A stretch of 64,000 nucleotides of DNA from Bacteroidales bacterium (lineage in GTDB: Bacteria > Bacteroidota > Bacteroidia > Bacteroidales > F082), in contig JAKSMU010000005.1 of the NCBI GenBank assembly GCA_024400455.1, positions 1-64,000 on the forward strand, in the 5' to 3' direction. Shown here one piece after another: positions 7,487 to 53,243 of this stretch (position 1 is the stretch's first letter; every line of letters begins with the position of its first letter). Position numbers and translations under genes: made by a program. A model generated the notes under the pieces. That model did no database searches and was not told where the DNA came from. It saw only the letters and a program-made list of their open reading frames with translations.

Positions 7487-8338
7487 CTATTCATTCCCAA
7501 TATACCCTTCTTGGTCATAACATCGGTGATATTTTTGAATTAAGTTGTATAGCGGAAGCAAACGTTTGTCTGAAGGAATATATTGTTTGAGTCTTTCGTA
7601 TTGGCTATTGTAGCGTTCCGCACTTCCTTTTTGAATGCGTATTTCAATATCTTCAGGAATAAGAAATGAAGAACGTTCACGAAGATGAATATAGAATTCG
7701 GTTTCAAAAATATGCATTCCAGCTAAATCAAAATCCCCGAAATGAAGATATGGATTGGGAATAGACTTGAGCCACCGTATCAAATCACCGTTTTGAGGAT
7801 AACGCGCCACAAAAAGAATTTGACTGTCGGTGGGAAACAAGTATTTTTGCTTACGGATGTTACGAAAATTCTCCATATTTTCTATACCGATTATCAAGAC
7901 ATCCTTCGGAATCGAAAAAAGTTCCCAATCGGCGATGAACAACATGCTTCCGGCAACTGGAGAAATAAGGATTTCTTCGGCTCCTATGTGCGCAGGAATC
8001 GGAGAAAAACTATTCACCATGAATCCCGGACAGCTTCGGATTACACGTGTCTTTGAATTTCCCGAATGGACAGCTAACCCTGCCCGTGTGGTTGTAGCGG
8101 GAAACTCTTCTCCATTCCAATCAAAACCTCTTAACTCTTCAAAGTGCTGTTCCAAAAACTGACGCAAAACCTCTATAGAAACAGCACACACAGTCTTATA
8201 ACTGCCATGTGACTGAATGGTTACCAATTCTTCGGAAACCAATGTTTTCCTGACACTATCATTCAGGGCCGACCAAGCCAATGGTTTGCCTTGAAGTAAC
8301 GTCTTCAGGTGGCTGATTTGTGTCGCAGAAAGGCTCAT
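7487..8338 (-). CDS. jetD: Wadjet-type protein JetD (toprim-like nuclease subunit)
   Basis: Protein of 283 aa. The key motif is YLHFGDFDLAGMHIFETEF at about residues 197-215, the DxD toprim signature (G-D-F-D-x-x-G) of JetD, which cleaves DNA after the SMC motor has extruded it. The upstream half would be the winged-helix and arm region. It is shorter than many JetD proteins (about 380-400 aa), fitting a compact variant. Last gene of the jetABCD operon; its start overlaps the jetC stop by 4 bases, so translation is probably coupled. Confidence comes from motif and context together. Confidence 0.85.
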   Translation of the reverse strand: MSLSATQISHLKTLLQGKPLAWSALNDSVRKTLVSEELVTIQSHGSYKTVCAVSIEVLRQFLEQHFEELRGFDWNGEEFPATTTRAGLAVHSGNSKTRVIRSCPGFMVNSFSPIPAHIGAEEILISPVAGSMLFIADWELFSIPKDVLIIGIENMENFRNIRKQKYLFPTDSQILFVARYPQNGDLIRWLKSIPNPYLHFGDFDLAGMHIFETEFYIHLRERSSFLIPEDIEIRIQKGSAERYNSQYERLKQYIPSDKRLLPLYNLIQKYHRCYDQEGYIGNE

Positions 8339-17560: not shown

Positions 17561-20500
17561 CTATTCCTTCCTCAGCACCAAATCGACCAGCAAAACAGCA
17601 TGTTCTTCCTCGTTTTTCGGGGCATCCTTCGGGCGCCAGGCTACGATGAAACGGATGGTTGCTGCGTTGACATGATAATTCTTTTCTGCCCAAAGACTTA
17701 GGTCGTTTTGCATCTTCTGCGACAGCTGACAGACTGAAAGATTCGTCTTTTTTTCATAGAGGCAGCTATTTTCAAAACGAAGTTGCTCTCCTGCCCTCAG
17801 CGCAAGAATTTCTTTCTTTCGCGGTTTGAAGAAATTGAGGTTCACGTCTTTATGCGAAAGCTGAAGTACGACCTCGTCGGGCATCCCGTAAGGGTTTTGG
17901 TTGGCAATCTTCCTGTCTGCCGGCAATCTGTCGAACATCGGACTGTTGGTGTGTATGAACAGCCGTTGCTTGGCTCGGGTAATGCCCACATAATAACGGC
18001 GAAGTTCCTCATCCGTAACATGAAGCGGTTTGGAAATCAGCATATAGACATCATCAAACTCCCTGCCTTTCGACTTGTGTATGGTCGAGACCACTACATC
18101 GGCACCCGAAAGGTCGCAAAAGTCCTCCACCGACGATTCAAACACAAACTCCTTGAAATCAGTCAGATATTTCATTTTGTTCGTTTCCTCGAACAATTGT
18201 ATGCATCGTTGCAGGTAATTAAGGCTTTCGGAATTGGCGTATGCGGCAAAAGTCTTGCGTTTAGCATCTTCCCATACCTCATCGGCAATGAGTGGCGTAT
18301 GTGTTTGGGCATCAATGTATTTCAAGAAAAGACGCACCTCCATCATGTTCCAGAAACGGAAACCATCCATGCTCTGAATCAGCTTGCTTTGCAGTCCGTA
18401 TTTTCTCAACAATGCCACAAGGATGACGGCTTCTTCGTTTGTTTGTGTGAGAACGCATACGGAACGCTTGCCTTGCTCAGAATCAGTGGCTTTATGTTGC
18501 TCAACAAGTTCGTTTACAAGAGGTTCATACATGCATTCCGACTGATGATGCGTCACACTGACAACACCATCGTCTTGACTCATCGACACGATTGGCGTGC
18601 TTTTCATTCTTTTATGAATATTCTTTACAAAAGCATTGGCGAAACCGACCACATGCCGCGAACTGCGGTAATTCTCGGTCATTTCGACAAAGCGTCCATC
18701 CGAATCCTTCAGCAACTGCGCCATGTATTTGGAGTCGGATCCACGGAATTCAAAGATATTCTGGTCGTCGTCACCCACGGCAATCACGCGCATTTCCTCG
18801 TTGGCGGTCATCAAAGCGCGTACAAGTGCATATTCTTCAGCACTCATATCCTGCGCCTCATCAATCACAAGCACGGTCTTAGCTATGCGGTTTGGTTCCA
18901 CCTCACCTTCAGTTATCATCCGAGCGGCACGTGCCACCACATCTTTCACTTCATCCAAATTGCCGATTCTGCCCAATAGGTCGAAACAATAGGAATGGAA
19001 GGTCTTAATTTCAACAAAATGAGCCGCATTGCCAATCAGTCCCATCAGCCGTTGCTTGAATTCTATGGCTGCAGCACGCGAAAAGGTGAGCATGAGCAGC
19101 TGTTCGTGTTTCACATCCTCAAGCATCAGCAGAGAGGCCAGTTTGTGTACCAGCACCCTTGTCTTGCCACTGCCTGGACCTGCTGCCACGACGATGCAGC
19201 GTGATTCCTTGTCGGAAATAATCTCCATCTGTTTCTCCGACAAAGTGCCAAAAAGCTGCTGGTATTTCTCAGGCGTCACATTGCGCTCTATCTCTTGCAA
19301 ACGATTGCCTTTGAAATACTTCGACACGAAACGCTTGTAGTCCATCTGGAAATAATCCTGCACATACTGCAAGGCGGCATCGTAGTCACGCACCATCAGA
19401 TTGGCATATTCGCCCACGATATGGACTTGCTGAATCTTCTGTTTGTAGAACTCGTTCAACATGCGGTAGTCGTCCTGCTTGTAACGCAATCTGTTATCCT
19501 TGATGCGGCGGATGTCCATGGCATTATACAACACGAGGAAACCGCCTTCCATTTTCAGAGCGCCAATCTTCGAAAGATAGAGCAAGGCTTCTTCCACATC
19601 CACAATCTGAACATCTTGAAGCGTGCCGAAAAGGTTCTGTTCCTGAGCCTTAAAGTCGTTCAACAGCTCCACAATCGAGAATTGCAAGCCTTTCTTCTGC
19701 GATTCCTCATCACTTGTTTGCTGTGCCTGATTGTAAAGCCATTCCACGGCAAAACGACAAATTTCCAATCGTCTTTCAAAACGTCTCAAAGTCGTCTCCA
19801 TATCCGCTTGACGCATCACTTCCAGATTGTGGGCAGCATCCTCTTTCTTTCGTGTGTAACCTTTCACAGTAAGGAAAAAGAGCAAGGTGCGTATGTCTTT
19901 CTCGGTGGCACTTGTTATGCCTTCATTCTGTGCATTGTCATTCAGTTGCTTGCAGGAAATCCTAAGGACATCATCAGGGATCTTGGTCAAGAGATAACGC
20001 TCCAGTTTTGAGAATCGTTCCAGCAGCCGTTTCGACTTGTTTTCCGACTCGCCCACATCGTTCAGATATGCTGAAATGTCTTTCGTATCGGCCAAAATAC
20101 CCTCCTGCCGCATGCGTTCAACTACCGACACGACTTCGCTTTTATTCAAGCCGAGAATGTCGGCCAGATAGTCCACACGCGATTCCGCTTCTGCATCTTG
20201 CGCCTTGGCTATGTATTTTTGCGAAATCAACGATTTGATGATACGCACGGCTTTTTCAACCTCATTGCTTTCGAAGAGCAACGACTCGGTGATACGCTGC
20301 CGTGCCTCGTCCATGTCCTTCACGGTGATGCCCGTGGCATAAACATGAGGGACGTTGTTTCCACGTTCCAGATAACCAGCTTGTTCGAGGGCTGCCAAGG
20401 CTGTCCGCACTCTCGTCTCAATGTCAGACACCGAGTCGTCCCAACCCGCCTTTCTCGCAATCTCCAAAGCCGAGCAACATGTCCGCATACGTTGTCGGGT

Positions 20501-22459
20501 CATGTCCTTAACGGCTTTCCAGACCTGCTGAATCTCGCTGATACTCAGTTTTGTCTGGTTTAACAGGACGAAATGTTTATCCAAATCAGCATCACTATAC
20601 AATACAAAACAACGAGCCTCGAGATGCGGGTCACGGCCGGCACGTCCTGCCTCCTGAACATAATTCTCCAAAGAATCGGAAATGTCGTAGTGAATCACGA
20701 GTCCGACATCCTTTTTGTCAACGCCCATGCCAAAAGCGGAAGTCGCCACAATGACGCGAACCCTGTCATTCATGAAGGCTTCCTGGTTGACAATTTTCTC
20801 GTCGGCATCCATCTTTCCGTTGAATGGCAAGGCCTTGTAACCGTCGCGGGTCAGTTTCTCCGCCAAATCCTTCGTGCGTTTGGTTCTTGAAACATAGACA
20901 ATTGTCGGACAAGACGACTCGGCTATCAGTGAACGGAGTTTCATGTACTTATCCTCATCGGTATCGGCATGGATGACGGAATAGCGGAGGTTAGTTCGCG
21001 AGGCTGTTGAGGCAAAAATGACAAGGTCGAGGTTAAGCGTTTGCTTGAAATAATCGCAAATGTCCTGTATCACTTTCTGCTTGGCCGTGGCGGTAAAACA
21101 CGACACGGGAATTGGCGCCTTACAGCGTTTCTTTTTCTGGTATTCGCTGATAAACTTGCCGATATAAAGATAATCAACGCGGAAATCCTGTCCCCACGAA
21201 GAAAAGCAATGCGCTTCATCAATCACGAAACGAACCACATGGCGTGCCAACAGAATCTTTTCAATCGTCTTCGAACGCAGCATTTCCGGTGCGATATACA
21301 AAAGCGAAGCATCGCCATCCTGAACGCGTTGAACGGCCAGCGAACGGCTGATAGGATCCAGTAATCCGTTGATGGTGACGGCATCGGTAATGCCTCTGTC
21401 AGCAAGGTTATCCACTTGGTCTTTCATCAGCGACTGCAAAGGCGAGATGACCACCGTAAGACCATGCACCGCGCGTCCTTCCATCAAGGCGGGCAGTTGG
21501 AATGTGAGCGACTTCCCACCGCCTGTCGGGAAAATCGCCAGCAATGACTTGCCTTCCACGGCTGCGCGAGCAGCATTTTCCTGCAAGGGTTCGCCTTCGT
21601 AGGTGCGGAACTGGTCATAGCCGAAAAACTGCTTAAGGTTATAATGCACATCCAATTCCTTGTTGCAGTATTCGCAGCCCTCAACACATTTCGTATGCCG
21701 CAACAGCATAACCACATTTTCAACATTCGGATAATTGTGCAGCACCCAAGACGGTGTCACCGAACGGTAATCCGTAGTGTCAATCAAGGCAAGGGCGTAA
21801 GCCAATTCTTCAGGTTGCCGATTCACAAGGTCCTCGAGAACGGCATGTTCACAAATCTTCCCTTTGTATGTTGCACGAATCAATTCAGGCAGTAAGGCCT
21901 TGTTTTCGGTTTTGGCATCAACAAATTCAAGGAAACCATCAAATTCAGGCACATTTTGCAAAAGCGAGGCATAAATCGTTCTTTTTGAATCCGGCAACAC
22001 ATTCCACCGCGCCACCTCATCCATCAGCAGATCACGGGCTTTCTCACAGTCGTTGACCGGATTATTCATCTGCTCACTCAGCAATTTGTCGTCCTTGAGC
22101 AAACGATGATAAGGCCTTTCGGGGAATAATAAAGGCGAGACAAACAAGGTATCAATCAAAGCCCATTTATGCGGTTCTTCACCAAACAGATACTTTGCAT
22201 CGTGATGGATGATATTGTGTCCACAGACGAAATCGACATTTTCCAAAAAATCCAAAGCCGCTTGTTTGTCAGCAGAATGAAGCACAGCTTCGTCACATCT
22301 TATGGCACCGATGTCATGTATTTTCTTATCCTTGACACCGACCTCCACATCCACAAAAGCATATCGGGAGGCACTGCGAGACACTTTCTCTTTTTCTTGC
22401 ATTTGTGGCTTGCGTTCTTCTCCACTGATTGTTTCTCTGATTTTGCTCCAAAATGACAT
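17561..22459 (-). CDS. DEDDh exonuclease - RecQ helicase - UvrD-like helicase fusion
   Basis: Giant protein of 1632 aa with three enzymes in one chain. Residues about 30-165: exonuclease with FVDVE (motif I), GHNIIHHDAKYL (II) and NPVNDCEKARDLL (III). Residues about 280-650: RecQ-type SF2 helicase with FPTGGGKSLTFQLPALM (about 313), VIDEAHCFSSWGQDFR, and the RecQ signature ENYVQEAGRAGRD. Residues about 1080-1545: SF1 UvrD/Rep helicase with AAGPGSGKTRVLVHKL (about 1091), VLVIDEAQDM, VGDDDQNIFEFRG, HKSKGREFDDVYML and YVGITRAKQRLF. The ATG at 22459 (MSFWSKIRE) is preferred over one 13 codons upstream. It is divergent from sbcDC. It may process DNA ends in repair or act against foreign DNA. Confidence 0.93.
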   Translation of the reverse strand: MSFWSKIRETISGEERKPQMQEKEKVSRSASRYAFVDVEVGVKDKKIHDIGAIRCDEAVLHSADKQAALDFLENVDFVCGHNIIHHDAKYLFGEEPHKWALIDTLFVSPLLFPERPYHRLLKDDKLLSEQMNNPVNDCEKARDLLMDEVARWNVLPDSKRTIYASLLQNVPEFDGFLEFVDAKTENKALLPELIRATYKGKICEHAVLEDLVNRQPEELAYALALIDTTDYRSVTPSWVLHNYPNVENVVMLLRHTKCVEGCEYCNKELDVHYNLKQFFGYDQFRTYEGEPLQENAARAAVEGKSLLAIFPTGGGKSLTFQLPALMEGRAVHGLTVVISPLQSLMKDQVDNLADRGITDAVTINGLLDPISRSLAVQRVQDGDASLLYIAPEMLRSKTIEKILLARHVVRFVIDEAHCFSSWGQDFRVDYLYIGKFISEYQKKKRCKAPIPVSCFTATAKQKVIQDICDYFKQTLNLDLVIFASTASRTNLRYSVIHADTDEDKYMKLRSLIAESSCPTIVYVSRTKRTKDLAEKLTRDGYKALPFNGKMDADEKIVNQEAFMNDRVRVIVATSAFGMGVDKKDVGLVIHYDISDSLENYVQEAGRAGRDPHLEARCFVLYSDADLDKHFVLLNQTKLSISEIQQVWKAVKDMTRQRMRTCCSALEIARKAGWDDSVSDIETRVRTALAALEQAGYLERGNNVPHVYATGITVKDMDEARQRITESLLFESNEVEKAVRIIKSLISQKYIAKAQDAEAESRVDYLADILGLNKSEVVSVVERMRQEGILADTKDISAYLNDVGESENKSKRLLERFSKLERYLLTKIPDDVLRISCKQLNDNAQNEGITSATEKDIRTLLFFLTVKGYTRKKEDAAHNLEVMRQADMETTLRRFERRLEICRFAVEWLYNQAQQTSDEESQKKGLQFSIVELLNDFKAQEQNLFGTLQDVQIVDVEEALLYLSKIGALKMEGGFLVLYNAMDIRRIKDNRLRYKQDDYRMLNEFYKQKIQQVHIVGEYANLMVRDYDAALQYVQDYFQMDYKRFVSKYFKGNRLQEIERNVTPEKYQQLFGTLSEKQMEIISDKESRCIVVAAGPGSGKTRVLVHKLASLLMLEDVKHEQLLMLTFSRAAAIEFKQRLMGLIGNAAHFVEIKTFHSYCFDLLGRIGNLDEVKDVVARAARMITEGEVEPNRIAKTVLVIDEAQDMSAEEYALVRALMTANEEMRVIAVGDDDQNIFEFRGSDSKYMAQLLKDSDGRFVEMTENYRSSRHVVGFANAFVKNIHKRMKSTPIVSMSQDDGVVSVTHHQSECMYEPLVNELVEQHKATDSEQGKRSVCVLTQTNEEAVILVALLRKYGLQSKLIQSMDGFRFWNMMEVRLFLKYIDAQTHTPLIADEVWEDAKRKTFAAYANSESLNYLQRCIQLFEETNKMKYLTDFKEFVFESSVEDFCDLSGADVVVSTIHKSKGREFDDVYMLISKPLHVTDEELRRYYVGITRAKQRLFIHTNSPMFDRLPADRKIANQNPYGMPDEVVLQLSHKDVNLNFFKPRKKEILALRAGEQLRFENSCLYEKKTNLSVCQLSQKMQNDLSLWAEKNYHVNAATIRFIVAWRPKDAPKNEEEHAVLLVDLVLRKE

Positions 22460-22520
22460 GATTGTATAATGATTAGATGAACAGAGGCTGTTAAGCACAG
22501 TCTTATCGAAAAAACAGATG

Positions 22521-22528
22521 CAAATATT
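22521..22528 (-). promoter_or_regulatory. Possible -7 element for the triple-fusion helicase
   Basis: Reads AATATTTG on the minus strand, one mismatch from TAnnTTTG, 61 bases before the chosen start. Confidence 0.3.
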
Positions 22529-22745
22529 GCAAAAAATTCAAAGCACTCGGCACACCAAAGGTAAATATTCTTATCTGTTAAAAATCAGCACAATGGATAT
22601 GGTTAGTTAAGCAATTGAACTATGGCATTATCAAAACATCCACTGAATCACTTGCAATTTTCCCCCATAGGCAGTATATTTACAACAAAAGACAATTCAT
22701 AGATTATGAATCACATTCATTTCCTTCGTTTCAAAGAATTATTCG

Positions 22746-22753
22746 TACTTTTG
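22746..22753 (+). promoter_or_regulatory. -7 promoter element for sbcDC
   Basis: TACTTTTG, full match to TAnnTTTG, 18 bases before the sbcD start codon, so the leader is very short. Confidence 0.6.
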
Positions 22754-22771
22754 TAGTCAAATTAAAATAAT

Positions 22772-24058
22772 ATGAAGATTATACACACTGCCGACCTTCA
22801 CCTTGGACAGGTCATTTACCAGAACTATGAACGCAGCGACGAACATCTGCATTTCTTCAAACAACTGAAACAATGGTGCATGGAGCATCATCCCGATGCA
22901 CTCATCGTCAGCGGCGACGTGTTCGACATCCAGCAGCCTTCAGCCGCTACAAAGAAAGCCTTCAACGACTATTTCGTTGACATTCACCGCTCTTGTCCTC
23001 AAATGGCAATTGTAATCACTGCCGGAAACCACGACTCGGCCTCGCGTATTCAGGCCGACAGCGCCATTTGGACGCTGGCTAACACGACAATGGTGGGAAC
23101 AGCACCTGCAACAGAACCTGAATTTGGCTGGGAAGAGAAATATATCGTGCGCATCCCAGCTGGTTATATCCTTGCCATGCCCTACATGTCAAGCGAACAC
23201 ACCGAAACGCTTCAGCACTTGCTCGATGTTGTGGCAAAAGAAAATGAAAAGGGATTGCCCGTCATCATGATGGGACACACTGCCGTGGCGGGTCTCGACA
23301 TCACCGGCCACAATATCGAAATTGGGAAGCTGAAGACACAAGGCACTGACTCCTTCGGCACTGGCTACGACTATCTCGCTCTGGGTCATATCCACAAACC
23401 GCAGACCATTGGCCATCAGGATGATGCCTTGAATGACGATGTAATTTATCCAGCCCCGGTGATCCGCTATTCAGGAAGTGCTTTGCATGTGAGTTGCGAC
23501 GAAACCTATCCCCACACGGTAAGTCTTGTTGAGATAGACAAACACGGTGGCAATGTAGAAATCAAGCAGTTGCGCATTGAAGAACTGCGTCATTTCTATG
23601 TCTTGCCCGAAAACGATTCGTCGTTCGAAAGTGCCGAAGACGCATTGAAAGCGATTATGGAGTTTTGTGAACATAACCAATCAGGGTATTTCCGTCTGCG
23701 AGTTGACATCAAGACGGACTTGCCTTCAAATTTCAACCAAATGGTCTACGACACCCTGGCGACGACGGGCGACGAAGTGCGTTACAACCCCAAAGTCATC
23801 TGGACAGGAAACACGGCCTTGACGGATTCGAACAACGAAAAACCTACTTTCGAAGTGGCGGAATTGCAGCAAATGGAAAATCCGCTTGACTTTATCGAAA
23901 AGACCATTGACCAATACCCTGCCCTTTCGCTCGATGAAATACGGAACGCTTTTAAAGAGGTCGAAGCGGAAATAAAACGAATGCAAGATGAGGAAAACCT
24001 AAAGGCCGCCGCCAAAGCAACGAAGAAATCATCAACAACCAAAACAGAAGGAGAATAA
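22772..24058 (+). CDS. sbcD: SbcD-like nuclease subunit (Mre11 family)
   Basis: Metallophosphoesterase nuclease of 428 aa, partner of SbcC in clearing hairpins and double-strand ends. The Mre11/SbcD metal motifs are in order: ADLHLGQ (about 7-13), SGDVFD (about 49-54), GNHDSASR (about 88-95), GHTAVAG (about 168) and LGHIHKPQ (about 207). The C-terminal 40 residues are a charged Lys/Glu helix likely to bind the SbcC coil. It is 4 bases from sbcC. Because the pair sits among defence-type genes, it may be an accessory copy rather than the housekeeping SbcCD. Confidence 0.93.
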   Translation: MKIIHTADLHLGQVIYQNYERSDEHLHFFKQLKQWCMEHHPDALIVSGDVFDIQQPSAATKKAFNDYFVDIHRSCPQMAIVITAGNHDSASRIQADSAIWTLANTTMVGTAPATEPEFGWEEKYIVRIPAGYILAMPYMSSEHTETLQHLLDVVAKENEKGLPVIMMGHTAVAGLDITGHNIEIGKLKTQGTDSFGTGYDYLALGHIHKPQTIGHQDDALNDDVIYPAPVIRYSGSALHVSCDETYPHTVSLVEIDKHGGNVEIKQLRIEELRHFYVLPENDSSFESAEDALKAIMEFCEHNQSGYFRLRVDIKTDLPSNFNQMVYDTLATTGDEVRYNPKVIWTGNTALTDSNNEKPTFEVAELQQMENPLDFIEKTIDQYPALSLDEIRNAFKEVEAEIKRMQDEENLKAAAKATKKSSTTKTEGE

Positions 24059-24062
24059 GAAC

Positions 24063-27000
24063 ATGAAGATAAAAGAATTACATCTGCGCAACATAGCTTC
24101 AATCGAAAAAGCCGACATTGACTTTGAGAACGAATTAAAAGACATCGTTACAGGCGAACCTGCCAGCATTTTCCTCATTGCTGGCGATACAGGCACTGGC
24201 AAATCCGTCATCCTCGACGGCATTTCCATGGCGCTCTACAAAAAGACTCCACGTATCGTTGGTGTTGCCAACAAGACGAATAATGAATACATTGACAATC
24301 AAGGACAAGCAATAAACATCAACAGCATTGAACAATACACGCGCCTGGGCATTTCAGAGAAAGACGAATGCTACAGCGAACTTGTCTTTGAAGGTAACGA
24401 TGGCAAGATATACCACGCCAAATTGGAGTTGGGCCTCACAAAAGGCAATACCGACGAAAAAGGCAACCGTCCGATAAAACACAGTACACCAAAGTGGACG
24501 GTAAAAGTAGGAAATGAAGATTGGCAGAAAGTTGAAGCCAAGACCGGTCAGCCCATCTTGGACGCCATTGGCCTTAGTTTTGAGCAATTCGGCCGTATGG
24601 CCATGTTGGCCCAGGGTCAATTCGCTTCCTTCCTTACAGGCGACAAATCGGAACGCGAACAGATACTTGAGCAACTGACCAATACCGAAAGATTCACAAC
24701 CTACGGCACGGCCATCAGCAATCTTTTTTCTACTGCAAAAACCAACAAGGCAAATGCTCAAACGACTTTAGAAACCGAGAAAAAGCATACACTGAAACCT
24801 GAACAACTCGAAGAACTCAACAGCCAGTTGACTATCTTACAAAAGGAAAAGGTTGTTTTGGACGATGAGCATGACAAGGTTCAAAACACGCTGAATACGG
24901 TTTGCGAGATCAGCGCTAACCTTGATGAACAAAAGAAGGCTGAAAAGCAAAAAGCCGCCGTTGTTGGAATCATCGAAAGCGATGACTACAAAGCAAAAAA
25001 GACCTTGGTTGCCGACTGGGATGCCACGAACAATGAACGCAGGCTGTTTTCCGACAAAACCGCAGCAGAGCAAAAGAAAGTAAAAGCGGAAAAATTACTG
25101 GCCGAAGCCAAAGATAATTTCGCCATTTATAGCGCCGACCTCGTCTATCGTAAGGAAGTCATTGAAAAGTATAAGCAAGACACGAACGAAATTCAAGCCG
25201 AGATTGACAGCCAGAAAGCGCTCGATGAAGTGTTTGCCAAAGCCGATGCCGTTGTGCTGCAATTAGGTCAATATCAAGGCACTTGCCGCAAGATAACGGC
25301 TGTGGAATCGTCGCTTGCAGCAGAAAAGGGAAAGACGGAAAGTCTCGCTAGTGCCGTAGCCGAGTGGGAATCAAAAGCAGCAACCGCAAAAGAAGCTGTC
25401 AAGGCAGAACAAGATTCCATTGATGCTTTAAATGATGAGCGCAATGCTCTCAATCCTATTGAGATAAATGCTGAATTCAAGGTAAACACTGAAAGAAAAA
25501 ACAACCTTAAAAATCTTCAGCAGCGCGTAGAGAAAATTGCGGAAAGCCAAGCTTCACTTGACTCATCAAGGCAGGAAATTGAGACGGAATCGACCAAGCT
25601 TTCGGAGCACAAAAAGGCTTTCGATGCCGCTCAGGACGAATACGATTCAATGCTGAAAAAAGAGGAAGAAGCACATTCCCTACTCAGCACCATGAAAATG
25701 AGCGTAGAAGAAACGCTTACCGAATTGCGTCAGCGTTTGCAGGCCGACCATGCCGACACCTGTCCGCTTTGCGGCCAGCACATCGACACACTCCATCTCG
25801 ACAACGATTTCCAACAAATGCTCACGCCATTGCAGCAACGCGAAGCGGAAGCCAAAAAGAATTTGACGGATGCAACTGCGAAACGTGACGATGCAAAGAG
25901 CAAATTCGACACCCTTAATGGTGTACTCAATAATAAGAAATTGGCATACGAAGAAGCCTTAAAGGATTTTGAAAGCGAAAAAACTTCAATTGTAGCGGAA
26001 TCGAAAAAATTATCACTTGACGCATCTCAAGACCTTGACCAGCAGATTACTGTTGCCATTCAGAAAACGGAAAAAGACCTTGCCATTCTTGAAGAAAAGC
26101 AGAGGAAGACAGAAGCATTGCAAACCCAAATCAACGATTTGGCAGAAGAGAAAAAGTCGCTTGACACGACACTCTCCAATGCCGAAAAAGAACTTCTGAA
26201 AGCACAGAATGCAGTGGTTTCAAATGGAAAAGACATCAGAAAATATGAAAATGACCTTGCCGAACTGAAAAGCACGAAGGACGATTTGAACAAAATATTG
26301 TCTTCTTGCCTCAACGCATCCTACCCGACTTGGCAAACCGACACTGATGCCATCAAGGCACAATTCAAAACCGATGCCAACGCATATTGTGACAAGAAAA
26401 AGAAAGTCGAGCATAGGAAGGCTGAAACAGAAAAATGGGAAAACCTGTTGGCATCAGTCAAAGATACGCGCACAAACATTCTTGCAAACCATAACGATTG
26501 GGACCAACCTGTTGAACCAAAGGAATATAAAACTGACAACCTCAATTCAATCTGGACTTCACTCCTGACTACAATTAGTCATCAAGACTTGGAAATTGAG
26601 ACGGCAATTAAGGTCATATCGGATGCAGAAACTGCGCTGAATGCCTATTACGCAAGCTCCGGAAAAACCGAAGAATCGCTCAAAATCATCATCAATGCTG
26701 AAAATTTGATTGCCGAAGCACGCAAGTTTGTCGGTGAAAAAGATTCCGAGCTCAAGTCGCGCACAGATGCCATCGCTGCTTATGACAAAAATATCGAAAA
26801 ACTGCTCAAGAAACTTGACATTGAGAAAATTGAAGACCTGCCAGGAAAAGAATCACTTGAAAATCAGCTCAATGAACTGAGAAAGAAGTTGCAGGAAAAC
26901 GCCGAAATAACAGGTTCCATCACCTCACAGCTCCGTTCGAATGAAGAAAACCTTAAGCGTCTGAGACAAGCTGAATCAGCATTCAACGCAGCGGATGCAG

Positions 27001-27518
27001 TGTTCACAAAATGGGATCGGTTGAATAAAGTCTTCGGTGGCACACGCTTCCGCACACTTGTGCAAACCTACATTCTGCGCCCATTGCTGAACAATGCGAA
27101 TATCTACTTGGAAAAGATAACCGACCGATATACACTTACTTGCAGCGAAGATAACGAACAACTGTCCATCCTCGTGCTTGACCGTTACAACAAGAACCAG
27201 GTCCGTTCGGTTACAGTCCTCTCCGGCGGTGAACGCTTTATGATTTCGTTAGCCTTGTCGCTTGCCTTATCTTCACTCAACCGTCAAGACATGAATGTCA
27301 ACATCCTTTTCATCGATGAAGGTTTTGGCACATTGGACGAGAACAACCTCAATTCGGTTATGGAAACGCTCGAAAAACTGCAAGAGATTGCCGGACAAAC
27401 AAACCGTCGCGTTGGAATCATTTCACATAGGGAAGAACTCGTCGAGCGCATCCCCGTAAAGATTCGCGTCAAGAAAAAAGGCGAAGGCCGCAGTCTGGTG
27501 GAAATAACTAACGAATGA
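24063..27518 (+). CDS. sbcC: SbcC-like SMC ATPase (Rad50 family)
   Basis: Protein of 1151 aa. N-terminal head with Walker A AGDTGTGKSVILDGISMALY (about 39-58) and a Q-loop region (MAMLAQGQFASFL). Two long coiled coils flank a zinc hook CPLCGQH at about residues 567-573. The C-terminal head has the signature LSGGERFMISLALSLALSSL and Walker B ILFIDEGFGTLD (about 1080). It works with SbcD as an ATP-driven nuclease on DNA ends. A 12-bp terminator overlaps the stop codon. Confidence 0.94.
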   Translation: MKIKELHLRNIASIEKADIDFENELKDIVTGEPASIFLIAGDTGTGKSVILDGISMALYKKTPRIVGVANKTNNEYIDNQGQAININSIEQYTRLGISEKDECYSELVFEGNDGKIYHAKLELGLTKGNTDEKGNRPIKHSTPKWTVKVGNEDWQKVEAKTGQPILDAIGLSFEQFGRMAMLAQGQFASFLTGDKSEREQILEQLTNTERFTTYGTAISNLFSTAKTNKANAQTTLETEKKHTLKPEQLEELNSQLTILQKEKVVLDDEHDKVQNTLNTVCEISANLDEQKKAEKQKAAVVGIIESDDYKAKKTLVADWDATNNERRLFSDKTAAEQKKVKAEKLLAEAKDNFAIYSADLVYRKEVIEKYKQDTNEIQAEIDSQKALDEVFAKADAVVLQLGQYQGTCRKITAVESSLAAEKGKTESLASAVAEWESKAATAKEAVKAEQDSIDALNDERNALNPIEINAEFKVNTERKNNLKNLQQRVEKIAESQASLDSSRQEIETESTKLSEHKKAFDAAQDEYDSMLKKEEEAHSLLSTMKMSVEETLTELRQRLQADHADTCPLCGQHIDTLHLDNDFQQMLTPLQQREAEAKKNLTDATAKRDDAKSKFDTLNGVLNNKKLAYEEALKDFESEKTSIVAESKKLSLDASQDLDQQITVAIQKTEKDLAILEEKQRKTEALQTQINDLAEEKKSLDTTLSNAEKELLKAQNAVVSNGKDIRKYENDLAELKSTKDDLNKILSSCLNASYPTWQTDTDAIKAQFKTDANAYCDKKKKVEHRKAETEKWENLLASVKDTRTNILANHNDWDQPVEPKEYKTDNLNSIWTSLLTTISHQDLEIETAIKVISDAETALNAYYASSGKTEESLKIIINAENLIAEARKFVGEKDSELKSRTDAIAAYDKNIEKLLKKLDIEKIEDLPGKESLENQLNELRKKLQENAEITGSITSQLRSNEENLKRLRQAESAFNAADAVFTKWDRLNKVFGGTRFRTLVQTYILRPLLNNANIYLEKITDRYTLTCSEDNEQLSILVLDRYNKNQVRSVTVLSGGERFMISLALSLALSSLNRQDMNVNILFIDEGFGTLDENNLNSVMETLEKLQEIAGQTNRRVGIISHREELVERIPVKIRVKKKGEGRSLVEITNE

Positions 27519-27552
27519 TTATTGGTGTCTTCGGACACCAATAATTTTTTTT
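27518..27552 (+). terminator. Rho-independent terminator of sbcDC
   Basis: Perfect 12-bp stem ATTATTGGTGTC (27518-27529) with GACACCAATAAT (27534-27545), 4-nt loop, then seven T. It starts at the last base of the sbcC stop codon and separates sbcDC from the next gene. Confidence 0.9.
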
Positions 27553-27584
27553 ACTCATTTTTCTCTTTATCCATTTCATTTTCG

Positions 27585-27592
27585 TATGTTTG
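27585..27592 (+). promoter_or_regulatory. -7 promoter element for the DUF4011 helicase
   Basis: TATGTTTG, full match to TAnnTTTG, followed by GCAA; 87 bases before the start codon. Confidence 0.6.
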
Positions 27593-27679
27593 CAACAAAC
27601 AATCTGTTATCAAGTTTTTTTATTTGCAAACACTTGATCAACAGCATTTAGTCCTTGAAAAACACAAAATAAACAAGTT

Positions 27680-30600
27680 ATGGTAGAATTTAGGATTGAT
27701 TACCTTCCCGCTGCAAACTATTCGCTGGTAAACAATAGAATAGCCATTTGTCAGTCAATCGAAATCAGCAACACTTCAAGTGAAGATTTGCGTGACATCG
27801 TAATTGAATGTTCCGGCGAGTTCTTTGCTCCTACACGCTCCAATGTGATTGACATAATCAAAGCGGAAAAATCAGTAAGGCTTCAAGGCGTTGATTTGCA
27901 ACTCATTCCCACAAAAGTCGCTTCCATTACCGAAAAAACGCTCACTACTTTCAGCGTAAAGGTTAATGTCAACGCAAGCAATGAAGCCGATTGTACGACG
28001 GTTTTCGCCAAAGACTACCAGATTGACATCATGCCATACGACCAATGGCTTGGAACCAGCATTCTGCCACAATGTCTGGCTTCTTTCGTCATCCCCAACC
28101 ATCCTGCCATCAACAACATTGTGGTAAAGGCTGCGCAAATTCTCAAGGACTTGTCAAAATCCTCATCTTTCACCGGATATCAGTCGGGAAACAGCAACGA
28201 AGTCAGGAAACAGATTGCAGCCATTTATGGTGCCTTGCACGCTGAGAACATCATCTACCGCCCAATGCCGGCATCGTTTGAAACCGTCGGACAACGGATT
28301 ACCCTCCCCGACCAAGTCCTTTCCTCCAAGCTCGGCAACTGCATTGAACTTTCTTTGCTTTTCGCCAGCATTCTGGAAAGCGTAGGCATTCATAGCGGCA
28401 TCGTCCTTCAGAAAGGGCACGCCTATCTAGCCGTTTGGCTTGTTGACGATTGCTGCCAGTACAGCGTCTGCGACGATTCTTCGTACATCGAAAAGAAGTG
28501 TTCCGAAGGCATCGGTGAAATGCTTGTCATTGAATGCACGCAAGTTACGGCAGAAAACACATCATTCGAAGATGCCCAGAGCATTGCTGAAAAAAATCTG
28601 GCCAACCTCAGCAAGTTTGAACTTTACATCGACATACGCCGATGCCGTCTTGAGCGGATTTTGCCTCTTCCCTTCAGAACAACGGTCAATGGCACAAGCG
28701 AAATCGACACCAATGGCGTTGAACATGACGGCTGTGGACTTGATGTAAAGGAACATTCGCGCTACGACCTTAGCAAAATCAAAGAAAGCAAGCGGGAACT
28801 GACCAAAATGGATTTGTGGGAAAGGAAACTCCTCGATTTCTCGCTCCGCAACTCCATGCTCAACCTCTATCTGCGCCAACGGGCCATCCAGTTCATATCA
28901 TTTGATGTGAACATTATTGAAGACCATTTGCAGGATGGCACCGAATATGTCATCGCTCCCAAGCCCGATGTGGACATTGAGATTCCAAATGATGACCGTC
29001 TTATCCGGTCAAAGCAATTGCCTGAATTGCACGAACTTGTCACAAACGACATCGAGCACCACACGCTTCATTCCTATCACACTGATATGGGAACGCGTAC
29101 CATTTTAAAGAACATATACCGAGCCTCCCGAAATGTCATTGAAGAAACCGGCGCCAACGCGCTTTATCTTGCCATCGGAACGCTAAGATGGTTCGAGACC
29201 GAACTCAGCGAAAAGCCACGCTATGCCCCAATTTTGATGTTACCTGTCGAAATGGTTTATAAAAAAGGGAATTATTACATCAGGAAACGGGACGAAGATG
29301 TGGTTTTAAACATCACTTTGATTGAGTTTCTGCGTCAGAATTTCGACATCAATATTGAAGGAATCAATTCATTGCCAAAAGATGAACATGGCATTGATGT
29401 GCCGCTGCTTTTCGCGCTCTTCAGAGAGGCGCTGAAGGACAAGAAACGCTGGGATGTTGAAGAGGAATCCATCCTCGGCATTTTTTCCTTCAGCAAATTC
29501 CTGATGTGGAACGACATCCACAATCACCGTCAGGAACTGTTGGAAAACGACATCATCAGAAGTCTTGTCAATCAGAAACTTGAATTCAATCCGGAAGCCA
29601 TTATCTCCGACCTGAAAGACGCTGACAAAGAGGATAAGCCCGACAGTCTCTCGCTGCCGGTTCCCGTCGACTCATCGCAGATGGCAGCAGTTGTCGAAGC
29701 GAGTCGTGGCCATTCGTTTATCCTTTACGGCCCTCCCGGGACAGGCAAGTCGCAGACCATTACGAACCTGATTGCCAACGCATTGTTCCACGGGAAGCGG
29801 GTCCTGTTTGTCGCTGAAAAAATGGCCGCCTTAAGTGTCGTCGAAAACCGTCTTCAAAAGATTGGACTTGAACCGTTTTGTCTGGAAATGCATTCCAACA
29901 AGATAACCAAACGCCATGTGCTCGACCAACTCAAAAAGGCGATTAGAGTTTCACATATCAAAAAGCCTGAGGATTACGCACGAACCGCAGAGCAACTTTA
30001 TGAACAAAGGACCAGTTTGATTGCCTACATGGAAGCTCTGCACAATGTCGAAAATGCTGATGGTTTGTCGCTTTACGACTGCATCGTCCGATATGAATCC
30101 ATTGACACTGAGGCCTTGGATTTTGATACCAACGACAAGGAGTTGAAGGAAAAATTCAGCATTAAGGAATTTGACAATTACAAGCATCTTTTACACGATA
30201 GGTACAACGTGATCGTCGACTTGGTCGGTCAGCCTTGCAAGCATCCTCTTAACGGACTTAACGTAACCGAATCAAACCTTTCCGACATTTCGCAACTGAC
30301 TCAAGAACTGAAGCAAGCTGCAGAAACGATTCAGTCAGGTATCGACAACAAGGAAAAACTTTCCACAACGGCAGCAAAAAAAACCGAAATCACCCGCGAT
30401 TGCAGCGAAGCCATTTTCAATGAAGACATCAATGCGTGGTATAATGAGTGGCGTAAAATCAAGGCCCAATGGTTTATTCCACGTTTCTTCGGAAAGAAAA
30501 ACTTCATCAAGAAACTGCGCAATTTCAATAATCTGATTGTTGAACAAGAAGTTGATTCATTCTTATCAAAACTTTTGGATTACAATGCCTTACATTCTGA

Positions 30601-33013
30601 AATCGACAAAATCAATGAGGTCATCGCCAAATATTTTGAAATCAAGACGACTGAAGACACACTTCCTTCGCAGCGTGTAATAAGCAACTGCATTGAGCGG
30701 CTTGAAAATTGGTCAAAGCATACCAACCAAGCCCGTGATTGGTACCAATGGTGCGCTTTCAAGCGCGAACTGAAAGATGCCGGGCTTGCCGTCGTAGCAA
30801 GAAAAATCGAAGAAACCGAAATTCCGGCAGGAACTTTATGCGACTCATTCTTCAAAGCGATGTTCAAGAGCCTTGCCAACGAAAAAATTGCGCAGTCGCC
30901 ATTGCTCAGGACCTTTGAAGGTTCCATCTTCGACGAAACGGTGGCAAGATACCGGAAACTCACGGAAGAGTTCCAGGAACTCAGTAAAAAAGAGTTATAT
31001 GCACAGCTTGCATCGCAAATTCCACATGTCACCGACAACATCAACAACAGCAGTGAATTAGGTCTGCTCAACAGAAACATTTCCAATGGCGGCCGAGGCT
31101 TGTCGCTTCGCGAACTGATGGATCAGATTCCTTCCTTGCTGCCTCGCCTCTGCCCATGCATGCTGATGAGCCCCATGTCGGTAGCTCAATTCCTTGACTT
31201 GTCGCAAGAGAAATTCGACTTCGTCATCTTCGACGAAGCCTCGCAAATGCCAACAAGCGAAGCCGTTGGGGCCATTGCCAGAGGAAAGTCTGTCATCGTT
31301 GTCGGCGACCCGAAACAGATGCCGCCAACCAGTTTCTTCGTTTCAACCAGTGTAAGTGAAGAAGAAGCGACAATCGACGATATGGAAAGCATTCTTGAAG
31401 ACTGCCGCACTTTGGGCATTCCGTCGCTGCAATTGAATTGGCACTACCGCTCGCGTCACGAATCGCTGATTGCATTCTCTAACAACGAATACTACGATGG
31501 ATCACTCATCACCTTCCCTTCTGCCGATGACCAGAACACCAAAGTGAAATACATCCATGTTGATGGAGTATACGACAAGGGTGGTCACAGATCAAATAGA
31601 AAAGAGGCCGAGGCCATCGTGAAAGAAATCGCAAGACGGCTCGAAATGCCCGACCATGCCGACAACAGCATTGGTGTCATCGCTTTCAGCGTCGTGCAGC
31701 AAAACCTTATCGAAGATTTGCTTCTGGAGATGCTTGAAACCAAGCTGAATCTACGCATGGCAGCCGATGAACTTTACGAACCGATTTTCGTGAAGAACCT
31801 GGAAAATGTGCAAGGCGACGAACGCGACATCATCCTCTTCTCCATCGGCTATGGTCCCGACAAGGATGGTAATGTATCAATGAATTTCGGTCCGCTCAAC
31901 AATGAGGGTGGCGAACGCCGCCTGAATGTGGCTGTCAGCCGCGCAAGAAAGGAAATGATGGTATTCTCCGCCTTAAGGTCGTCTCAAATTGACTTGAGGC
32001 GTTCCAAAGCAAAAGGCGTTGAAGGGTTGAAACATTTCCTCGAATATGCCGAACAGCAAGTCCTCGTTCTGCCAAGCAACACGAATTCTGAAACTAAAGA
32101 CACGGTTATGGCCGAACAGATTGCCGAAGCATTACGCAAAAAAGGCTATGTTGCCCATACCAATATCGGACGTTCCAACTTCAAGGTTGACGTGGCAATC
32201 AGTGAAGATGCCAATTCCAGCAACTATTGCTTAGGACTGCTCCTCGATGGCGAAAACTATCACAAGACCCAAACGACACGCGATCGTGAAATCGTTCAAC
32301 CATCAGTGCTTAAAAGTTTGAATTGGAGAATCATGCGTATTTGGAGCGTCGACTGGATTACGAATCCCAACAGAGTCATTTCGCGCATCGAAAAATTCAT
32401 CAAGGAAAAGCCAGAACCCAAAGAGGAACTTGTCAAGAAAACAGATTTCGACATCTCGCACGAAACAGTAGAAGAACAGAAAAGCAAAGTCACGGCATAT
32501 AACGCATTTGTTGGCAATGCTTTCGTGACGACCATGGACAACGCCCAGCTTGCTAAAGCCATTTTGAAATGCGAGCAACCCATGACATTGAACTATCTCT
32601 GCAAAAGAATCTGTTTCTTCCGCGATATGCCAAGGACTACACCTGCGATGTTGGCTAAAGTCACTGACTTGGTCAAAAACAAAATGTATTTTGAAAAAAA
32701 AGGTTCCAATATCGTTGTCTGGAATGATGTTGAAGCATCAAGGAATTTTTCCGGCTACCGGCAACACAATGACCGCGACATTACTGAGATTCCTTATATC
32801 GAAATTGCGAATGCCATTGTGGAAGCTGTCACTGAGCAGTTCTCAATCAACAAAGATGCCCTGAGCTTGATTGTGACAAAAAAACTCGGCTTCTCCCGCA
32901 GAGGCACAAAAGTCGACCAGGCATTGAATGAAGCACTCGATTATCTGATCAATAAAGGAAGAATATTCAACATTGACGGAAACATACGCTTAGGAAATAC
33001 ATCATCTCATTGA
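27680..33013 (+). CDS. Transglutaminase / DUF4011 / SF1 helicase / Vsr-like nuclease / DUF3320 protein
   Basis: Protein of 1777 aa. Residues about 145-250 resemble a transglutaminase-like fold with LSSKLGNCIELSLLFASIL (Cys about 221) and QKGHAYLAVW (His about 245). DUF4011 follows (about 370-600). The SF1 helicase has Walker A YGPPGTGKSQTITNLIANAL (about 683-702), FVIFDEASQMP (about 1180), VVGDPKQMPPTSFF, LNWHYRSRHESLIAF, VQGDERDIILFSIGYG and RRLNVAVSRARKEMMVF. Residues about 1475-1570 are a Vsr/MTES_1575-like endonuclease (FKVDVAISED, LLLDGENYHKTQTTRDRE). The end matches DUF3320. Related DUF4011 helicases occur in defence islands and some are linked to phage resistance. Monocistronic with its own promoter. 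Confidence 0.9.
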   Translation: MVEFRIDYLPAANYSLVNNRIAICQSIEISNTSSEDLRDIVIECSGEFFAPTRSNVIDIIKAEKSVRLQGVDLQLIPTKVASITEKTLTTFSVKVNVNASNEADCTTVFAKDYQIDIMPYDQWLGTSILPQCLASFVIPNHPAINNIVVKAAQILKDLSKSSSFTGYQSGNSNEVRKQIAAIYGALHAENIIYRPMPASFETVGQRITLPDQVLSSKLGNCIELSLLFASILESVGIHSGIVLQKGHAYLAVWLVDDCCQYSVCDDSSYIEKKCSEGIGEMLVIECTQVTAENTSFEDAQSIAEKNLANLSKFELYIDIRRCRLERILPLPFRTTVNGTSEIDTNGVEHDGCGLDVKEHSRYDLSKIKESKRELTKMDLWERKLLDFSLRNSMLNLYLRQRAIQFISFDVNIIEDHLQDGTEYVIAPKPDVDIEIPNDDRLIRSKQLPELHELVTNDIEHHTLHSYHTDMGTRTILKNIYRASRNVIEETGANALYLAIGTLRWFETELSEKPRYAPILMLPVEMVYKKGNYYIRKRDEDVVLNITLIEFLRQNFDINIEGINSLPKDEHGIDVPLLFALFREALKDKKRWDVEEESILGIFSFSKFLMWNDIHNHRQELLENDIIRSLVNQKLEFNPEAIISDLKDADKEDKPDSLSLPVPVDSSQMAAVVEASRGHSFILYGPPGTGKSQTITNLIANALFHGKRVLFVAEKMAALSVVENRLQKIGLEPFCLEMHSNKITKRHVLDQLKKAIRVSHIKKPEDYARTAEQLYEQRTSLIAYMEALHNVENADGLSLYDCIVRYESIDTEALDFDTNDKELKEKFSIKEFDNYKHLLHDRYNVIVDLVGQPCKHPLNGLNVTESNLSDISQLTQELKQAAETIQSGIDNKEKLSTTAAKKTEITRDCSEAIFNEDINAWYNEWRKIKAQWFIPRFFGKKNFIKKLRNFNNLIVEQEVDSFLSKLLDYNALHSEIDKINEVIAKYFEIKTTEDTLPSQRVISNCIERLENWSKHTNQARDWYQWCAFKRELKDAGLAVVARKIEETEIPAGTLCDSFFKAMFKSLANEKIAQSPLLRTFEGSIFDETVARYRKLTEEFQELSKKELYAQLASQIPHVTDNINNSSELGLLNRNISNGGRGLSLRELMDQIPSLLPRLCPCMLMSPMSVAQFLDLSQEKFDFVIFDEASQMPTSEAVGAIARGKSVIVVGDPKQMPPTSFFVSTSVSEEEATIDDMESILEDCRTLGIPSLQLNWHYRSRHESLIAFSNNEYYDGSLITFPSADDQNTKVKYIHVDGVYDKGGHRSNRKEAEAIVKEIARRLEMPDHADNSIGVIAFSVVQQNLIEDLLLEMLETKLNLRMAADELYEPIFVKNLENVQGDERDIILFSIGYGPDKDGNVSMNFGPLNNEGGERRLNVAVSRARKEMMVFSALRSSQIDLRRSKAKGVEGLKHFLEYAEQQVLVLPSNTNSETKDTVMAEQIAEALRKKGYVAHTNIGRSNFKVDVAISEDANSSNYCLGLLLDGENYHKTQTTRDREIVQPSVLKSLNWRIMRIWSVDWITNPNRVISRIEKFIKEKPEPKEELVKKTDFDISHETVEEQKSKVTAYNAFVGNAFVTTMDNAQLAKAILKCEQPMTLNYLCKRICFFRDMPRTTPAMLAKVTDLVKNKMYFEKKGSNIVVWNDVEASRNFSGYRQHNDRDITEIPYIEIANAIVEAVTEQFSINKDALSLIVTKKLGFSRRGTKVDQALNEALDYLINKGRIFNIDGNIRLGNTSSH

Positions 33014-48129: not shown

Positions 48130-48177
48130 ATCAAAAAAGTTTAGTGCTGCAAAATTGCGAAAATTATTCGTGTCTTT

Positions 48178-48210
48178 TTGTCGAAGCAAAGAAAAAACAT
48201 CGTATTTTTG
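48178..48210 (+). promoter_or_regulatory. Promoter of tRNA-Tyr
   Basis: TTG (48178-48180) and TATTTTTG (48203-48210), 22 bases apart, 40 bases before the tRNA. Confidence 0.7.
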
Positions 48211-48249
48211 CAGCGTCAAATCCGAAAGGAAGACGTTCTTTAAAATCTT

Positions 48250-48331
48250 GGGGGAGTCGCATAGTGGCAATTGCAACAGACTGTAAATCTGTCCTCGGAT
48301 GAGTTCGGTGGTTCGAGTCCACCTTCCCCCA
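48250..48331 (+). tRNA. tRNA-Tyr (GTA)
   Basis: 82-nt class II tRNA. Acceptor GGGGGAG pairs with TTCCCCC; anticodon loop CTGTAAA gives anticodon GTA; a long variable arm is present; T-loop TTCGAGT; discriminator A; no encoded CCA. Confidence 0.95.
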
Positions 48332-48335
48332 CAAG

Positions 48336-48366
48336 AAAACGGGTCGCAAAAGCGATCCGTTTTTTG
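48336..48366 (+). terminator. Terminator after tRNA-Tyr
   Basis: AAAACGGGTCGC (48336-48347) pairs with GCGATCCGTTTT (48352-48363) around a 4-nt loop (one G-T pair), followed by more T. Confidence 0.8.
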
Positions 48367-50195: not shown

Positions 50196-50318
50196 ATATA
50201 GGTGTAATTGAGGTGTAATTCACATCTCTTCACAAACCCTCATCTTTGCCCACGATTTAACCGCCGTGGGCTTTCTTTTTGTGGCCACAAGAATCCCGCA
50301 GCACAAAACAGAAATAAT

Positions 50319-50690: not shown

Positions 50691-50707
50691 CTCAAACCCC
50701 TCGCGCC

Positions 50708-53169: not shown

Positions 53170-53177
53170 CCGTCATT

Positions 53178-53206
53178 CCCGCCGTCATTCCCGCGAACGC
53201 GGGAAC
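53178..53206. repeat. Palindromic intergenic repeat
   Basis: TTCCCGCG-aa-CGCGGGAA (53188-53205), preceded by two copies of CGTCATTCCCG(C). It is a dispersed hairpin element placed between two genes of the operon; it could modulate expression of the genes after it. Confidence 0.7.
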
Positions 53207-53243
53207 CTTATTATCACAACCACAATCTCTAAAAATCAGCAAA

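What the first reader, a model, noticed from the sequence alone, without database searches (positions are those of the whole stretch)
17561..33013. Candidate multi-unit defence cluster: exo-RecQ-UvrD, SbcDC, and transglutaminase-DUF4011-helicase-nuclease
Three adjacent transcription units encode over 4900 residues of DNA-end processing machinery beside type I RM and Wadjet. The DUF4011-type helicase class has been linked to phage resistance, and an SbcCD pair here may be an accessory copy. They may act as one system or as neighbouring systems in an island.
Basis: inference. Interest (0 to 1): 0.7.

Follow-up and report, generated by a model that had tools for sequence, protein, structure and literature searches.

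The report
Three neighbouring DNA-processing modules, not one
A bacterial defence island next to recA holds a known anti-phage gene, the genome's only SbcCD nuclease pair and an unnamed mobile exonuclease-double-helicase gene; they arrived separately and are very unlikely to be one system.

Summary
The four ORFs are real, intact and correctly placed; only the RecQ-UvrD start should move to ATG 22459 (1632 aa). They are three independent transcription units and three independent acquisitions. (1) proA (27680-33013) passes the curated cut-off of NCBIfam 'anti-phage protein ProA' (1803.5 vs 1500 bits): a known defence family. (2) sbcDC (22772-27518) is canonical and is the only SbcCD found in a 99.6%-complete genome, so not an accessory second copy. 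It is not a fixed core locus either: its sbcD is 59-62% identical to that of genus members whose housekeeping RecQ is 92-93% identical, and the closest genome has a different one. (3) The exonuclease-RecQ-UvrD gene is a mobile one-gene cassette: 95.6% (aa) and 91.7% (nt) identical in a genus member whose housekeeping RecQ is only 75.7%/72% identical, with unrelated flanks. Its N-terminal DEDD exonuclease, missed by Pfam in 31 of 31 homologues, is supported by invariant acidic residues and by fold. A strong terminator separates sbcC from proA. In 54 fetched loci from elsewhere no second unit was found nearby; in 295 genomes of the order ProA (16) and the exonuclease-RecQ-UvrD (21) coincide in two. 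Open lead: the latter as a solo anti-invader gene.

The parts
21920..22372 (-). DEDD-type 3'-5' exonuclease-like domain (about residues 30-180; D37, E39, D87, D137)
   Evidence: invariant in 31 of 31 homologues; AlphaFold2 model with a 4-row alignment, pLDDT about 80-93 over most of the domain; VIA-align best match S. aureus DinG Z 12.6; Pfam finds nothing
20450..21637 (-). RecQ-family helicase domain
   Evidence: TIGR00614 268 bits over cut-off 219.8
17945..19240 (-). UvrD/PcrA-type SF1A helicase domain
   Evidence: PF00580 and PF13361
17535..22478 (.). block of 91.7% DNA identity with an unrelated locus of another species; flanks not homologous except a short promoter-side stretch to about 22550
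22725..22753 (+). Bacteroidota-type promoter-like motif before sbcD (consensus recalled)
22772..24058 (+). sbcD, 428 aa, all five metallophosphatase motifs searched are present
   Evidence: TIGR00619 116.8 bits over 77.65; motifs
24063..27518 (+). sbcC, 1151 aa, Walker A, zinc-hook CPLC, signature LSGGE, Walker B
27517..27553 (+). intrinsic terminator after sbcC (13-pair stem, T run)
   Evidence: dG -17.2 kcal/mol, z -6.8
27560..27592 (+). Bacteroidota-type promoter-like motif before proA (consensus recalled)
27680..33013 (+). proA: transglutaminase-like + DUF4011 + SF1 helicase + MTES_1575 nuclease, 1777 aa
   Evidence: NF058533 1803.5 bits over cut-off 1500; PADLOC PDC-S37 1115 bits
28187..28414 (+). 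transglutaminase-like domain of ProA (C-H-D triad)
   Evidence: PF01841; triad complete in the window and 10 of 16 aligned homologues by reading the printed block
29666..31969 (+). SF1 helicase region of ProA
   Evidence: PF13086, PF13087; motif conservation in 17 sequences
32114..32401 (+). MTES_1575 restriction-endonuclease-like domain of ProA
   Evidence: PF18741
33076..36880 (-). core flank: uridine-kinase-like, TPR and recA genes, conserved in 6 relatives that lack this island at that side

Best explanation
The span holds three separate modules gathered in a lineage-specific defence island beside the recA-TPR-kinase core genes. (A) ProA is a stand-alone anti-phage protein of a known family; inferred mechanism: an SF1 helicase sensor that engages invading or damaged DNA, opens it and cuts with its MTES_1575 nuclease, with the transglutaminase-like N-terminus as a regulatory or recognition part. 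(B) SbcCD is the genome's only Rad50-Mre11-type end/hairpin nuclease; it most likely does the ordinary SbcCD job (trimming hairpins and blocked ends), but was acquired horizontally in place of whatever SbcCD relatives carry. (C) The exonuclease-RecQ-UvrD protein is a mobile single-gene DNA-degrading machine; inferred: its two 3'-5' helicases load on ends, gaps or forks of foreign DNA, unwind it, and the DEDD exonuclease removes the exposed 3' strand. Shown by sequence: domain content, intact motifs, predicted separate transcription signals, independent distribution and origin. Inferred: all biochemical activities and the defence role of (C).
For: Independent distribution: 60 relatives searched per protein; no other unit found beside 31 exonuclease-RecQ-UvrD, 17 ProA or 6 close-type SbcCD loci (flanks); order-wide 295 genomes: ProA 16, exonuclease-RecQ-UvrD 21, both 2. 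Independent origin: exonuclease-RecQ-UvrD 95.6% in G001 and 85.2% in G053 (1273 aa piece), where housekeeping RecQ is 75.7% and 64.1%, but 56.7-61.4% in genus members with RecQ 84.6-93.1%; ProA nearest in G246/G224 (55-56%, other families) against 45.7-47.4% in genus members G010/G023; SbcD 59-62% at RecQ 92-93%. Separate transcription. Only SbcCD. ProA membership. Exonuclease fold. Mobility of (C): plasmids and IMG/VR contigs L320-L322, each near methyltransferase or type III RM genes.
Against: Within the 36 genus genomes the close SbcCD type sits in 5 of 6 genomes that also hold exonuclease-RecQ-UvrD (9 of 36 do): hypergeometric P 0.0018; SbcCD with ProA 3 of 4 (P 0.010), both uncorrected for kinship and for three tests; the labels are not clustered on the RecQ tree. 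So a loose functional link acting from separate loci is not excluded. In the genus SbcCD (G002, G021, G031) and ProA (G010, G023) use one and the same neighbourhood. A PADLOC scan of 100 of 206 genes flanking exonuclease-RecQ-UvrD showed no clear excess of defence genes over 100 of 146 flanking other SbcCDs, which weakens a defence role for (C).
Confidence: 0.8

Rival explanations
1. One multi-gene defence system: exonuclease-RecQ-UvrD, SbcCD and ProA jointly recognise and degrade phage DNA ends.
For: Adjacency in this genome; co-presence in genus genomes G000, G010, G021 (statistics).
Against: No linkage found in any other fetched locus; two coincidences of ProA and exonuclease-RecQ-UvrD in 295 genomes against about 1.1 expected, on different contigs in G290; terminator between sbcC and proA; different nearest relatives for each unit.
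Confidence: 0.05
2. Accessory SbcCD: a second, defence-dedicated SbcCD besides a housekeeping one, comparable to the SbcC-like LmuB of Lamassu.
For: It sits in a defence island; PADLOC LmuB models match SbcC (best E 4.2e-22); SbcCD turns over strongly in the genus and is undetected in 11 of 36 genus genomes.
Against: No other SbcC or SbcD in the 99.6% complete genome; its partner is a canonical SbcD; all searched catalytic motifs are SbcCD-like; solved-structure matches are SbcC/Rad50.
Confidence: 0.12
3. The exonuclease-RecQ-UvrD protein is a recombination/repair helper of mobile elements (plasmids, prophages, integrative elements) rather than a defence protein.
For: Found on plasmids next to ParA/ParB (Aliarcobacter) and on circular records of Bacteroides, Nostoc, Allochromatium and others; in IMG/VR contigs; no clear excess of defence genes around chromosomal copies.
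Against: Neighbours often include restriction-modification: the window, Allochromatium type I RM, an MmeI-type enzyme (L277), type III RM directly upstream in L320 and methyltransferases in L321 and L322; CRISPR type I-D genes near the Thiothrix copy.
Confidence: 0.35

Closest known systems
NCBIfam NF058533 'anti-phage protein ProA' / PADLOC PDC-S37
   Same: Full-length match of the 1777-aa protein over the curated cut-off (1803.5 vs 1500 bits); PDC-S37 1115 bits.
   Different: Nothing that I could detect; a somewhat shorter member (1777 aa, model 1903 positions).
Hhe (NF042953, DUF4011 anti-phage protein)
   Same: DUF4011, SF1 helicase, nuclease architecture.
   Different: 759.9 bits against a cut-off of 2000: relative, not member.
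SbcCD / Mre11-Rad50
   Same: Metallophosphatase motifs, Walker A/B, zinc hook and signature all present; SbcC (6s6v) is the best solved match.
   Different: Sequence-divergent; sits in an island instead of a fixed core locus.
WRN (human exonuclease-RecQ) and DinG (exonuclease-helicase)
   Same: DEDD exonuclease fused N-terminally to a helicase; S. aureus DinG is the best fold match, Z 12.6, rmsd 3.8, 206 residues aligned; WRN chains match the RecQ part.
   Different: Neither has RecQ plus UvrD in one chain (recalled); likeness of fold and architecture only.
Hachiman HamAB (helicase-nuclease defence; PMC12278908, passages seen)
   Same: Works-like comparison only: a helicase senses DNA ends or damage and licenses a nuclease.
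   Different: Two proteins, a different helicase (HamB, likened there to Hel308) and a different nuclease (HamA); no sequence relation tested.

Membership tests
NF058533 anti-phage protein ProA | whole-protein score over the curated cut-off (1500 bits) | tested here: met
   1803.5 bits
NF058533 anti-phage protein ProA | phage protection | not testable with these tools
   needs a laboratory assay
Hhe (NF042953) | score over the curated cut-off (2000 bits) | tested here: not met
   759.9 bits
SbcCD | SbcD subfamily TIGR00619 cut-off 77.65 | tested here: met
   116.8 bits
SbcCD | SbcC subfamily TIGR00618 curated cut-off 478.5 | tested here: inconclusive
   204 bits, under the cut-off; but only 1 of 14 control genomes passes it while all 14 ring, so the cut-off does not decide membership here
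SbcCD | Walker A, zinc hook, signature, Walker B; five metallophosphatase motifs; adjacent sbcD-sbcC | tested here: met
   (motif set recalled)
Lamassu | LmuA effector beside the SMC-like LmuB | tested here: not met
   neighbours are SbcD and ProA; neither matches an LmuA model
RecQ family helicase | TIGR00614 cut-off 219.8 | tested here: met
   268 bits
DpdF (Dpd system) | NF041063 equivalog cut-off 550 | tested here: not met
   205.2 bits; matches only the RecQ helicase region
Gabija GajB | UvrD-type GajB beside the nuclease GajA | tested here: inconclusive
   GajB models match only the UvrD part; SbcD, SbcC and ProA match no GajA model; a GajA further off was not sought
DEDD exonuclease superfamily | four acidic residues on an RNase H-like fold | tested here: met
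   D37, E39, D87, D137 invariant in 31 of 31; fold matches; the usual H/Y of the last motif is N132 here, so the subtype is open
   divergent gene, terminator and separate promoter-like motifs; prediction only

The most novel reading that the evidence does not exclude
The exonuclease-RecQ-UvrD protein is an unnamed single-gene defence system against invading DNA: a WRN-like exonuclease-RecQ machine with a second, UvrD-type motor, carried between distant bacteria as a one-gene cassette with its own promoter, and found in at least four bacterial phyla.
Probability: 0.33. Interest if true: 0.6.

Novelty: new member of a known kind. Interest (0 to 1): 0.36.

Why it matters
It shows that a visually tempting 15-kb 'system' is a stack of separately acquired parts, and isolates the one part without a name: a horizontally mobile exonuclease-RecQ-UvrD protein whose exonuclease domain Pfam misses and that PADLOC and NCBIfam match only through its helicase domains. 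It also shows SbcCD, usually thought of as housekeeping, being swapped between types in one genus, which bears on why SMC-like end-processing machines keep turning up in immunity (PMC10586767, passages seen).

Tried and rejected
One-system hypothesis: rejected on linkage, distribution and origin. Accessory-copy hypothesis: rejected for lack of a second copy. Guilt by association for exonuclease-RecQ-UvrD: of 206 flanking ORFs (150 aa or more, within 8 kb, 22 loci) 128 passed a length limit and I scanned 100; of 146 control ORFs around other SbcCDs 112 passed and I scanned 100. No clear excess; the tool lists only the 25 commonest of 130 matching families, so the exact number of defence-like neighbours is not known: inconclusive. 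Genome contigs with SbcC gave one relative, viral contigs with ProA none, phage records only RecQ-part matches, 0 of 21 records covering 80%. Folding the N-terminus alone gave a useless model (pLDDT 35.6); with three viral-contig homologues it reached 70.4. Foldseek alone gave weak E-values (best 9.9e-4). A solved-structure profile search of the N-terminal alignment found mainly the RecQ edge and weak exonuclease matches (E 0.02). Literature: searches (listings read) showed no paper on ProA of this family and none on a RecQ-UvrD fusion in the held library; I do not claim that none exists, as most subscription papers are not held.

Full report
What is there. The window is the first 64 kb of contig C45 (217,516 bases) of a 2.9-Mb, 75-contig genome, 99.6% complete; the nearest named SbcC relative is from a Bacteroidales MAG, so a Bacteroidales host is my inference. 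The four ORFs are as described. The RecQ-UvrD gene should start at ATG 22459: its 95.6%-identical homologue in G001 starts there, and homology upstream fades except for a promoter-side stretch to about 22550.

ProA. The 1777-aa protein has Transglut_core, DUF4011, AAA_11/AAA_12 helicase and MTES_1575 nuclease domains. It passes NCBIfam's curated cut-off for 'anti-phage protein ProA' (1803.5 vs 1500 bits) and fails that for Hhe (759.9 vs 2000). Helicase motifs are near-invariant in 17 sequences; the transglutaminase C-H-D triad is complete in the window and in 10 of 16 aligned homologues, altered in 2, and the domain is missing in 4 (read from the block printed). It is rare: 16 of 295 genomes of the order at E 1e-50; 320 plasmid records match it or its DUF4011 relatives at E 1e-60. 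Neighbourhoods of the 17 fetched loci share no other unit of this window.

SbcCD. SbcD passes TIGR00619 (116.8 vs 77.65 bits); SbcC stays under the strict TIGR00618 cut-off (204 vs 478.5), as do 13 of 14 control genomes. All motifs searched are present. It is the only SbcC and SbcD found in this genome; the third SbcC-model match, E 5e-5 on C1, is weak and on a 552-aa frame. In the genus 25 of 36 genomes have a detectable SbcC and the same 25 an SbcD. Only five others (G002, G010, G012, G021, G031) carry the close type, SbcD 59-62% identical where housekeeping RecQ is 92-93% identical; other genus members measured show 34-42% SbcD at RecQ 81-95%. In G002, G021 and G031 the close type sits in a shared neighbourhood different from this window; ProA of G010 and G023 sits in that same neighbourhood. 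The nearest genome by RecQ, G014 (98.0%), has an SbcD only 44% identical and only partial helicase matches to ProA and to the exonuclease-RecQ-UvrD protein. SbcCD here is thus both unique in its genome and non-core in its genus.

Exonuclease-RecQ-UvrD. Nine of 36 genus genomes hold a full-length copy (a tenth, G029, has a C-terminal fragment at a contig edge), and three of the other 24 relatives hold one (split over two contigs in G053); 21 of 295 in the order by the N-terminal part. The N-terminal 300 residues match no Pfam exonuclease in any of 31 sequences, yet D37, E39, D87 and D137 are invariant in all 31 (window plus 30, including Bacteroidota, Campylobacterota, Cyanobacteriota and Pseudomonadota). 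An AlphaFold2 model from four sequences (mean pLDDT 70.4) gives, on second-look alignment, S. aureus DinG at Z 12.6 with rmsd 3.8 over 206 residues; I read the other 49 listed entries as exonuclease or polymerase-exonuclease structures too. The pattern scan of viral contigs for this domain also picked up eight proteins of another kind, two of which I tested and found to be family-A polymerases with the match in their N-terminal part. Mobility: 4,944 bp at 91.7% DNA identity with G001, ending at the gene's borders, flanks unrelated, against 72.0% DNA identity for housekeeping recQ of the same two genomes; 85.2% protein identity (1273-aa piece) with G053 of another family against 64.1% for RecQ. 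Homologues sit on plasmids (25 records at E 1e-60, 5 covering 80% or more) and in three IMG/VR contigs, one directly behind a type III restriction operon, one beside a C5 methyltransferase, one beside two N6/N4 methyltransferases. Chromosomal neighbours are mixed.

Are they one system? Transcription: the RecQ-UvrD gene is divergent from sbcDC; a 13-pair hairpin with a T run ends sbcC (-17.2 kcal/mol, z -6.8, 0 of 200 shuffles as good) and promoter-like motifs precede sbcD and proA (consensus recalled; 23 such motifs in the window, about 0.1 expected per 300 bp). Linkage: none found in 54 fetched loci from elsewhere (31 exonuclease-RecQ-UvrD, 17 ProA, 6 close-type SbcCD), with the caveats that several loci are cut short by contig ends, that the comparison required 35-40% query coverage, and that one of the 17 ProA loci (L242) is a distant match below that coverage. 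Distribution: ProA and exonuclease-RecQ-UvrD coincide in 2 of 295 genomes, about 1.1 expected. Against me: in the 36 genus genomes the close-type SbcCD coincides with exonuclease-RecQ-UvrD in 5 of 6 (P 0.0018) and with ProA in 3 of 4 ProA genomes (P 0.010), and exonuclease-RecQ-UvrD with ProA in 3 of 4 (P 0.041), without correction for kinship or for three tests; on the RecQ tree these labels are not clustered. I cannot explain this and leave it open.

Island context. On the right, recA, TPR and kinase genes are conserved in six relatives, whose sequence beyond them shares nothing with this island apart from a weak 27% HsdM-like hit; on the left lie type I RM and a Wadjet-like operon. The picture is a defence island at a variable site by recA.

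How it most likely works. ProA: helicase-gated nuclease acting on phage DNA (family known; mechanism inferred). SbcCD: hairpin and blocked-end nuclease in ordinary repair, with possible side effects on phage or plasmid DNA (inferred). Exonuclease-RecQ-UvrD: two 3'-5' motors and a 3'-5' exonuclease in one chain, suited to processive removal of DNA from ends or gaps (polarities recalled from the families); a defence role is my best guess at about one in three, a mobile-element repair role is the main rival. A works-like parallel is Hachiman, where a helicase sensing DNA ends licenses a nuclease (PMC12278908, passages seen).

Noticed in passing
window 7487-13736 (-): Wadjet-like operon (DUF7281, DUF3584/MukB-like, MksE, 399-aa protein without Pfam match); NCBIfam recognises none of the four and PADLOC gives only a weak JetC match to one of the two scanned: a divergent member.
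   Followed up: partly
window 16577-17107 (+): Free-standing DnaQ/Rv2179c-like exonuclease (176 aa) next to the exonuclease-RecQ-UvrD gene; annotated 3'-5' exonuclease genes also lie within about 10 kb of the plasmid homologues in Allochromatium and Thiothrix.
   Followed up: no
window 48242-48340 and L149, L153, L154: In G005 and G032 a divergent SbcCD lies directly beside the tRNA-Tyr that in the window stands next to the aminotransferase 46966-48276 without SbcCD; possibly an alternative SbcCD site.
   Followed up: partly
window 54333-61721 (-): Peptidase-C39 ABC transporter, HlyD and radical SAM genes; GC drops to 30-31% over 58000-62000: looks like a peptide (RiPP-type) export cluster.
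   Followed up: no
window 49233-53940 (+): DUF3987/PriCT_2 primase-like gene and neighbours beside tRNA-Arg 48901, with strong GC skew: probable integrated element.
   Followed up: no
L138, L140, L141, L157, L158: A shared chromosomal neighbourhood in the genus hosts SbcCD in three genomes and ProA in two: a candidate hotspot.
   Followed up: partly
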